Shown: one piece after another, positions 17,485-19,834 of the stretch
How the letters are laid out: every line of letters begins with the position of its first letter
Position numbering within the stretch: position 1 is the stretch's first letter
Assembly: GCF_000724625.1 (NCBI RefSeq)
Contig: NZ_CP007139.1
Span: forward strand, 3,224,001-3,288,000
Source: Fimbriimonas ginsengisoli Gsoil 348
Lineage (GTDB): Bacteria > Armatimonadota > Fimbriimonadia > Fimbriimonadales > Fimbriimonadaceae
Direction of reading: 5' to 3'
DNA length: 64,000 bases
The notes under the pieces: model-generated
The model's database searches: none
Told to the model about the DNA's origin: nothing
The model's input: the letters and a program-made list of their open reading frames with translations, nothing else
Made by a program: the position numbers and the translations under genes

Positions 17485-17537
17485 CGACGCATGAATCGTG
17501 GCTACAGCTGGCCTAACCAAAGGATCGTTTTCAGACG

Positions 17538-17566
17538 TATAATGTATTTCAACGCGTGTTGAAATA
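17538..17566 (+). promoter_or_regulatory. Promoter -10 and overlapping operator-like palindrome of the AbiEi-like gene
   Basis: TATAAT at 17538-17543 is followed one base later by TATTTCAAC-GCGT-GTTGAAATA (17545-17566), a 9-bp inverted repeat covering the expected transcription start. A protein bound here would block initiation, consistent with autoregulation by the winged-helix domain encoded downstream. Confidence 0.7.
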
Positions 17567-17582
17567 GGTCGTAACTCTGAAA

Positions 17583-18590
17583 ATGACGAACCCCCTTTTG
17601 CAAAGTGCTGCCGACCGGGTTCGAAGCGTGTTTTCCGATTTGGAGATACAGGCAGTTCCACTTTCCGCCGATTGCGGGATAGATCTGTCGGTCTCGGTAG
17701 GTAATCAGGTGATTCTGATCGAGGCGAAGAAACACCTCTGGCCAAACGAGGTAGCGTCTCTCGCGGCCTACATGAGGTCACGATGTCAGGAACATGCAGA
17801 AAAGCCATGTTTCCCGATGGTTGTGGCACCCGCCATCTCCGAGAAATCAGCCCTGATTTGCAAGAAAGTGGGACTTAACTGGGCGGACTTGGCCGGAAAC
17901 TGCCACATACAGACTGAGAACATTCTCATCCACGTCGAAGGCAAGAGTAATCCTCTTGCGAAGAAGCGAGGAACTGCCTCGCTCTATACGCCTCGGGCGG
18001 CGAGGGTCGTTCACGCACTTCTTCTAGATCCCATGAGGCGATGGAAGGTAGAGGAACTGGCCCATCGCTCGGAAGTTAGCCTTGGCCAGGTTTCAAATGT
18101 CCGCCAACTTCTCATCAAGAATGCGTTTGCCGAAGCTGGTCGCGAGGGTCTAGACGTGGTCGATCCCAGAGGCCTTCTTGCCGACTGGGCAAGCTCGTAC
18201 AAGCCGCGACACAATACGAAGACGTTCTTCACGCTCCAGCGACCTGCCGACATTGAGCGGTCCCTGTCCCGTCACCTAACCGACTACGCTCTTACCGAGA
18301 TGTCGGCCGCGGATCGCTATGCACCTTTTACGCGACATCAAAGAGTGAGCTTCTACGTGGCCGCCTGGCCATTGCACCTCGATAGGGTGCTTGAACTTCG
18401 ACCCGCCGAAGGAACTCCAAACCTTTTCATCTACGAGGATCCTGAAGGACTTCGATTTTCGGAGGATAGGGACGGTGCTCTTTGTGCTTCTCCCATCCTT
18501 ACCTATCTAGATCTGTCGAACATGGGTGGTCGAGGTCAAGACGCCGCCGAACACCTTTTGGATAACGTCATCCATCCGAGGTGGCAGTGA
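17583..18590 (+). CDS. AbiEi-like antitoxin with nuclease-like N-terminal domain
   Basis: 335 residues. The N-terminal part (about 10-110) carries a D-x12-ExK signature (Asp34, Glu47 and Lys49 in GIDLSVSVGNQVILIEAKK), as in PD-(D/E)XK nuclease folds. Residues about 130-205 are a winged helix (VHALLLDPMRRWKVEELAHR, VSLGQVSNVRQLLIKN), and the C-terminal part ends YLDLSNMGGRGQDAAEHLL, typical of AbiEi-family (COG5340-like) antitoxins. It overlaps the nucleotidyltransferase gene by 4 nt (GTGA). The nuclease-like block could be a degenerate scaffold rather than an active enzyme. Confidence 0.75.
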   Translation: MTNPLLQSAADRVRSVFSDLEIQAVPLSADCGIDLSVSVGNQVILIEAKKHLWPNEVASLAAYMRSRCQEHAEKPCFPMVVAPAISEKSALICKKVGLNWADLAGNCHIQTENILIHVEGKSNPLAKKRGTASLYTPRAARVVHALLLDPMRRWKVEELAHRSEVSLGQVSNVRQLLIKNAFAEAGREGLDVVDPRGLLADWASSYKPRHNTKTFFTLQRPADIERSLSRHLTDYALTEMSAADRYAPFTRHQRVSFYVAAWPLHLDRVLELRPAEGTPNLFIYEDPEGLRFSEDRDGALCASPILTYLDLSNMGGRGQDAAEHLLDNVIHPRWQ

Positions 18591-19378
18591 ACCGGGACGA
18601 GGCGAGCCGGACCCAAATTCAGGCAACCTACGCAGTCTTGCAAGAAGTAGCGGAAGTATTAGAAGACTTCGCCGGGGCTGTCATCGCGGGAGGAACGGCT
18701 CCCTTTCTTCTCATTCCACAGACCCTTGAGCCACATGAAGGAACCGTTGACGTCGACGTAGTTCTCGATCGTTTGAAGCTTCGCAGCAACTCGGAACTCA
18801 CATTGCACGAACTCTTCGAGCGGCGCCTATTTGTGCAGGACGTCAAGAAGCCGTTCAGGTACTCGAAAGTCCTCCAGATCCAGGGGGCGCCTCATATGGT
18901 GCATGTGGATCTACTGACCGGTGGTGTTCCAACGCCCGACGGTTTCGTGCAAATCGCTTCGGAAGATGTATATGCAACTGTGATCGAGGGAATGGAACTT
19001 GCCTTCGATCGGCCAAGTCGGGCTGAGCTTTCCGCGGGCGTATGCGTCGACGTCACCTCGATCGCAAGTTTTCCAGCGATGTAGGCGTTTGCCCTCGAAC
19101 GGCGAGACGATTCGATGAAATCGAAGGATGCCTATGACATTGTCTACTGTCTGCGTAACTACGCGGGCGGCGTACCTGCAATTGCGAACGAGGTCTTGGC
19201 ACGTTTGCCGAACGCGCTCCTAGAGCGAGGACTGGAGAGACTTTCAGCATCGTTCGCTTCCGTGACTTCTCTTGGGCCGGCTGTTTACGCTAGACGAGCT
19301 CTTTCTGCGGAGGAAGGGAGACTGTTGAGCCGTGAGGCCTTCGAACTTGTGAGTGATCTGCTGGACCTGCTTCCGTAG
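18587..19378 (+). pseudogene. AbiEii-like nucleotidyltransferase toxin gene interrupted by an amber codon
   Basis: Frame 18587-19378 is one gene of 264 codons broken only by TAG at codon 166 (19082-19084). Before it lie the nucleotidyltransferase motifs AVIAGGTAPFLL (Gly-Gly 35-36) and GTVDVDVVLD (Asp55, Asp57) and a third acid in MVHVDLLTGG. After it the frame continues AFALERRDDSMKSKDAYDIV, the helical segment expected directly after AMK in AbiEii-type toxins; a single A-to-T change would turn AAG (Lys) into TAG. The C-terminal part retains an ATG at 19115. Either the toxin is inactive, the protein is made in two pieces, or the stop is read through. Confidence 0.75.
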
Positions 19379-19426: not shown

Positions 19427-19834
19427 GTGGCTAGCGGATTCTTTTCGGATGGACCGGTGTGCGTGGCGACGCTCGTTTGCAACGAGGTGATCGAGGATAA
19501 GCGATCGGGAAATAAGACGGTCGTGGGGATCTTCAATGCGATCGGCGCGGCTCAGCTTCCCGCCACTCATCCGCGGATGAGCGTGATGGCGTCGGTCACG
19601 AACGCGGAGCGAGAAATCGGGGTCGAGCTTATCTTGCGCGGGCCGGAAGGAAAGGACATGCTGAACGTGGACGCGCAGGTCCCGGCGCGCGGGCCGGGCG
19701 ACGTCGTCGACCTGCTGTTCGAGCTGAACAACATCACTTTCAACGAGTTCGGCGACTACGCTTTCGAGGTCGTCTACAACGGCGTGGTGATCGGCGCGCG
19801 GAAGTTCCTCGTCATCGAGCACAAGCCGCAGTAG
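19427..19834 (+). CDS. DUF6941-like conserved protein
   Basis: 135 residues from GTG 19427. The sequence has an all-beta pattern with VCVATLVCNEVIEDKRSGNK, TVVGIFNAIGAAQLPATHPR, a central strand GVELILRGPEGKDML and a C-terminal FEVVYNGVVIGARKFLVIEH. This arrangement is that of the DUF6941 family, small cytoplasmic proteins of unknown role found in many soil bacteria. No catalytic motif is evident. It converges with the HhH protein gene over a 33-bp gap. Confidence 0.7.
   Translation: MASGFFSDGPVCVATLVCNEVIEDKRSGNKTVVGIFNAIGAAQLPATHPRMSVMASVTNAEREIGVELILRGPEGKDMLNVDAQVPARGPGDVVDLLFELNNITFNEFGDYAFEVVYNGVVIGARKFLVIEHKPQ

What the first reader, a model, noticed from the sequence alone, without database searches (positions are those of the whole stretch)
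18587..19378. Toxin gene broken by a single amber codon while its antitoxin stays intact
The reading frame is continuous on both sides of TAG at 19082-19084 and the family-typical helix continues after it. One base (AAG to TAG) separates it from an intact gene. The stop falls after the catalytic core, so a truncated, still active or split protein is conceivable; recent inactivation or readthrough are alternatives.
Basis: partly seen in the sequence, partly recalled or inferred. Interest (0 to 1): 0.6.

Follow-up and report, generated by a model that had tools for sequence, protein, structure and literature searches.

The report
Toxin gene freshly broken, antitoxin kept
A soil bacterium carries a borrowed toxin-antitoxin gene pair whose toxin gene is cut by a stop codon exactly at an active-site residue, so the toxin is almost certainly dead while the antitoxin and its switch remain intact: a tidy example of a known evolutionary outcome, not a new mechanism.

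Summary
One reading frame (18581-19378) is interrupted by TAG at 19082-19084 and encodes a relative of AbiEii/MenT nucleotidyltransferase toxins. The overlapping upstream gene (17583-18590) is an intact AbiEi_2-type antitoxin, and its palindromic operator (17547-17564) is preserved. The genome matches Fimbriimonas ginsengisoli Gsoil 348 in size.

The stop does not fall after the catalytic core. It replaces the motif III lysine, conserved in every relative aligned over that site; motif IV and the C-terminal helical domain lie beyond it. A truncated, split or re-initiated product would lack an essential active-site residue. None of 45 tRNAs found has an amber anticodon, other broken homologues have stops elsewhere, and the gene itself ends in TAG; all this argues against readthrough.

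After the stop the protein is as conserved as before it, with no second lesion, so inactivation is recent or, less likely, a sequencing error (454 data, stated accuracy 99.994%). The pair has foreign base composition, and toxins of this family are broken independently in several related genomes while the antitoxin is usually intact.

Verdict: a recent loss-of-function allele leaving a self-regulated orphan antitoxin. Ordinary, low interest.

The parts
17547..17564 (.). Palindromic operator TTTCAACGCGTGTTGAAA, just downstream of a TATAAT-like -10 element; likely binding site of the autorepressing antitoxin
   Evidence: The same palindrome at the same place (after a TATACT/TATAAT-like box) occurs in relatives G094, G092, G080, G128, G039 and G021; unique at 0 mismatches in the genome, and 2-mismatch sites are near control level. 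Function inferred.
17583..18590 (+). AbiEi_2-type antitoxin / autoregulator, 335 aa, intact (wHTH around residues 137-192, AbiEi_2 C-terminal domain 192-330)
   Evidence: PF09952 20.4 bits, just under its cut-off of 21; all 5 sequences scanned match PF09952, best E 2.7e-6; homologues overlap the toxin start in the same way
18581..19084 (+). 5' part of the broken toxin gene, 167 aa, with motif I (GG, about 18689-18694) and motif II (D-x-D, 18749-18757)
   Evidence: motifs as described in PMC3985639 and PMC10435456
19082..19084 (+). In-frame TAG at the motif III lysine position of the AbiEii/MenT family
   Evidence: Column is Lys in all 11 other toxins aligned over it; 15 residues before the motif IV Asp, the same spacing as K137-D152 in MenT1
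19085..19378 (+). Still-open 3' part of the toxin gene, 97 aa, with motif IV KDAYD (19124-19138) and the C-terminal helices
   Evidence: 47-55% identical to the close relatives after the stop, as before it

Best explanation
This is a horizontally acquired AbiE/MenAT-like toxin-antitoxin operon whose nucleotidyltransferase toxin was recently inactivated by a nonsense mutation at its motif III active-site lysine. The antitoxin and its operator are intact, so what remains is in effect a self-repressing orphan antitoxin. The likely course is: the pair was acquired; carrying an active toxin was costly or no longer useful; a toxin-null allele was tolerated because losing the toxin first is safe, whereas losing the antitoxin first is not. 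Shown here: the lesion, its position, the intact partner and operator, foreign composition, and no further decay. Inferred: loss of toxicity, autorepression, and the selective reason.
For: Full-length homologues paired with the same antitoxin. Stop column is Lys in every relative aligned there. The fold of an intact relative's toxin matches MenT1 (Z 12.9) and MenT3 best, and K170 lies in helix 163-176. Mutating each motif abolishes toxicity in characterised members (PMC3985639, PMC10435456). GC3 is 0.56-0.59 against 0.80-0.84 in neighbouring genes, and none of the flanking genes lies beside the pair in relatives. No excess change at conserved sites: 13/63 before and 4/27 after the stop, against 12/62 and 6/29 in the comparably distant G123. 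Other family members have independent toxin lesions beside an intact antitoxin: G021 TAG, G043 frameshift, G128 C-terminal frameshift. In G095 the toxin's 5' end is replaced by a transposase gene.
Against: No raw reads or sister strain could be examined, so the base could be a sequencing error (stated accuracy 99.994%, PMC4072686). No second lesion and normal conservation are also what an intact, misread gene would show. Toxicity of this subfamily was not tested here and no test of it was found.
Confidence: 0.77

Rival explanations
1. Sequencing or assembly error: the gene is intact in the living strain and the pair works as an ordinary TA system.
For: The genome was read by 454 at about 22x plus Sanger, with a stated accuracy of 99.994% (PMC4072686), which implies roughly 300 errors in 5.23 Mb. 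There is no sign of decay anywhere else in the gene.
Against: 454 errors are mostly homopolymer insertions and deletions rather than substitutions (general knowledge), and the site is not a homopolymer. Independent toxin lesions in relatives make a true lesion plausible.
Confidence: 0.15
2. Amber readthrough or suppression yields a low level of full-length toxin.
For: The frame after the stop is intact and conserved.
Against: 45 tRNAs found, none with a CTA anticodon (the genome paper counts 46 or 47). No relative has a stop at this position, and other broken toxins have different stops. The gene's own terminator and that of the next gene (19832-19834) are TAG, so TAG ends genes in this genome. 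The site needs a lysine, which near-cognate readthrough would give only part of the time (general knowledge).
Confidence: 0.04
3. The 5' or 3' fragment has a function of its own, as a split enzyme, a dominant-negative or a co-repressor working with the antitoxin.
For: ATG at 19115 could restart an 87-aa fragment carrying motif IV. The 5' fragment keeps motifs I and II.
Against: Neither fragment contains the motif III lysine, because the stop sits on it, so a rejoined enzyme would still lack it. Conservation of the two halves is only what recent inactivation predicts.
Confidence: 0.04

Closest known systems
AbiE type IV toxin-antitoxin systems (AbiEi-AbiEii; the COG5340-COG2253 and COG4861-COG4849 pairs in PMC3985639)
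   Same: Regulator gene upstream of and overlapping a DUF1814/AbiEii nucleotidyltransferase gene; motifs I-IV; inverted-repeat operator at the promoter.
   Different: Antitoxin has an extra N-terminal region and matches AbiEi_2 (PF09952); the toxin carries a nonsense codon at motif III.
MenAT systems of Mycobacterium tuberculosis (MenT1, MenT3/TglT)
   Same: Predicted fold of an intact relative's toxin matches MenT1 and MenT3 best in the PDB; same T-x-D, K and D arrangement, with K-D spacing of 15 as in MenT1.
   Different: Low sequence identity (about 15-18%); no detectable match by sequence to solved structures; antitoxin is larger.
Orphan antitoxins, e.g. in Klebsiella pneumoniae (PMC7192599)
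   Same: Antitoxin retained without a working partner toxin; proposed as decaying TA pairs or anti-addiction modules.
   Different: Here the broken toxin is still next to the antitoxin with a single lesion, so the loss is caught at an early stage.

Membership tests
AbiEii/DUF1814 nucleotidyltransferase toxin | Sequence match to PF08843 in intact relatives of the window protein | tested here: met
   All 4 intact relatives match, best E 2.2e-9, L022 at 28.1 bits over the cut-off of 22.5. The window's own pieces are below the cut-off.
AbiEii/DUF1814 nucleotidyltransferase toxin | Motifs I (GG) and II (D-x-D) | tested here: met
   AGGTAPF and TVDVD in the window protein, aligned with the relatives
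AbiEii/DUF1814 nucleotidyltransferase toxin | Motif III lysine and motif IV within one translated protein | tested here: not met
   The lysine position is TAG and motif IV lies after the stop. So it is a broken member, not a working one.
AbiEii/DUF1814 nucleotidyltransferase toxin | MenT-like fold | tested here: met
   Model of an intact relative (pLDDT 74.6) against MenT1 8an4: Z 12.9, 179 residues, rmsd 4.0. Not modelled for the window protein itself.
AbiEii/DUF1814 nucleotidyltransferase toxin | Inhibits growth when expressed alone and is neutralised by its partner | not testable with these tools
   Needs an expression assay
AbiEi antitoxin | wHTH plus AbiEi C-terminal domain, encoded directly upstream of the toxin | tested here: met
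   PF09952 in all 5 members scanned, the window protein at 20.4 bits just under the cut-off of 21; overlapping arrangement in relatives; a Variovorax homologue's partner is annotated AbiEi family antitoxin. The wHTH itself rests on a model whose confident part is about residues 130-200.
AbiEi antitoxin | Autorepression through inverted repeats | tested here: inconclusive
   Conserved palindrome at the promoter; binding not testable here
Programmed stop-codon readthrough | Stop conserved at the same codon in relatives | tested here: not met
   Lysine in all relatives aligned over the site; other lesions lie at other sites

The most novel reading that the evidence does not exclude
The 167-residue fragment is kept by selection as a nucleotide-binding, non-toxic partner of the antitoxin (co-repressor or decoy), so that the operon works as an anti-addiction or sensing module rather than as a decaying TA pair.
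Probability: 0.04. Interest if true: 0.5.

Novelty: new member of a known kind. Interest (0 to 1): 0.2.

Why it matters
It is a clean snapshot of the first step in decay of a toxin-antitoxin pair: one lesion, on an active-site residue, with partner and operator untouched. Several independent toxin lesions in relatives suggest that toxin-first loss is common in this family. It also warns that an automatic count of TA systems would score this genome as having a working pair, or as having only an antitoxin.

Tried and rejected
Suppressor tRNA: none among 45 tRNAs. Recoding shared with relatives: no. Antitoxin turned into a wider regulator: its operator occurs once in the genome, and looser matches are near control level. 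Relaxed selection after the stop: no excess of changes. Phage origin: no relatives found in phage records or viral contigs; relatives occur on proteobacterial plasmids. Empty-site comparison: flanking genes are too diverged or lie elsewhere in relatives. A residue-level alignment to MenT1 by sequence was not found, so the K137 equivalence rests on motif spacing and fold. The antitoxin model is mostly low confidence and was not used for a fold search. The whole genome could not be loaded for a genome-wide count of interrupted genes.

Full report
Check of the observation. The window lies at 3224001-3288000 of a complete single-contig genome of 5,231,762 bases, exactly the size published for Fimbriimonas ginsengisoli Gsoil 348 (PMC4072686). 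The frame 18581-19378 is broken by one TAG at 19082-19084, and 97 codons stay open after it. The upstream ORF 17583-18590 overlaps the toxin start by ten bases and is complete.

What it is. Homologues of the read-through protein occur in 22 of 291 genomes of the phylum, eight of them in the same genus counting this one. In most cases where the contig allows, the same antitoxin gene lies directly upstream; G087, G090 and G095 are exceptions. Intact relatives match Pfam AbiEii and the antitoxins match AbiEi_2. A model of an intact relative's toxin (pLDDT 74.6) matches MenT1 (Z 12.9) and then MenT3/TglT best in the PDB. Proteobacterial relatives sit on plasmids; the one in Variovorax lies next to an annotated AbiEi family antitoxin and beside anti-phage genes.

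Where the stop falls. In the alignment the stop column is lysine in all 11 other toxins aligned over it. It lies 15 residues before the first Asp of KDAYD, the spacing of K137 and D152 in MenT1; T55-x-D57 corresponds to T39-x-D41. D41A, K137A and D152A abolish MenT1 toxicity (PMC10435456), and mutation of each of motifs I-IV abolishes AbiEii toxicity (PMC3985639). So the stop is at the active site, not beyond it, and neither fragment can carry the lysine.

Readthrough. Rfam tRNA search gives 45 genes, and ARAGORN reads ordinary anticodons in them, none CTA. The published count is 46 or 47, so one or two were not seen. The gene itself and the next gene end in TAG, so TAG is a normal terminator here. 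Other homologues with in-frame stops (G021 TAG, G013 TGA) have them elsewhere.

Age of the lesion. Identity to G094 is 52.1% before the stop and 50.5% after it; other relatives show the same pattern. At columns invariant in the other sequences, the window departs at 13 of 63 before and 4 of 27 after the stop. G123, comparably distant, departs at 12 of 62 and 6 of 29. About 2-3% of random substitutions in this ORF would make a stop, so roughly 23 extra stops are expected per substitution per site (kappa 2). Zero extra stops gives only a loose bound of about 0.13 substitutions per site.

Origin and regulation. GC3 of both genes is 0.56-0.59 against 0.80-0.84 in neighbours, and no neighbour of the window pair lies beside the pair in relatives, which fits horizontal acquisition. 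A palindrome TTTCA-N8-TGAAA follows a TATACT/TATAAT-like box upstream of the antitoxin in the window and in relatives. In this genome it occurs without mismatch only here. Autorepression by the antitoxin is inferred from AbiE (PMC3985639).

Toxin-first loss. In-frame stops were reported in 4 of 25 toxin matches and 1 of 32 antitoxin matches, and with profiles in 3 of 28 against 1 of 39. The difference is suggestive, no test of significance was run, and many records are draft assemblies. Further lesions: a frameshifted toxin with intact antitoxin in G043, a C-terminal frameshift with intact antitoxin in G128, a toxin cut at a transposase gene in G095, and a remnant in G090. One opposite case exists (antitoxin with TGA in G259 C244). 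Orphan antitoxins are well known (PMC7192599).

Verdict. A real lesion is most likely, recent, and disabling; a sequencing error is the main rival. The retained antitoxin may be transient, or useful against related toxins; nothing here shows the latter. The finding is ordinary and its interest is low.

Noticed in passing
L112, genome position 287604-288404: A second, intact AbiEii gene (PF08843, 107 bits) lies elsewhere in the same genome, preceded by a wHTH-type AbiEi-like gene. It appears to belong to a different subfamily, so cross-neutralisation by the orphan antitoxin is open.
   Followed up: partly
17583-17740: The N-terminal part of the antitoxin has a D...ExK pattern (invariant D30 and E47 in five sequences) reminiscent of restriction-endonuclease-like folds. 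NucS is a weak hit and the model there is low confidence.
   Followed up: no
L076 2200-4653: In relative G095 the toxin's 5' end is replaced by what look like genes for a DDE-type transposase and an ATPase, and no antitoxin was found in that genome.
   Followed up: partly
L082 4766-5640: In G021, a one-contig genome, the toxin homologue has its own in-frame TAG at a different position beside an intact antitoxin.
   Followed up: partly
17530-17583: In several relatives the antitoxin frame runs open through the operator palindrome (FQHVLK in translation), so translation may start inside the operator on a nearly leaderless mRNA.
   Followed up: no
L070, genome position 1498065-1498140: A low-scoring extra tRNA (41 bits) read by ARAGORN as tRNA-Asp with an oddly placed anticodon.
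   Followed up: no
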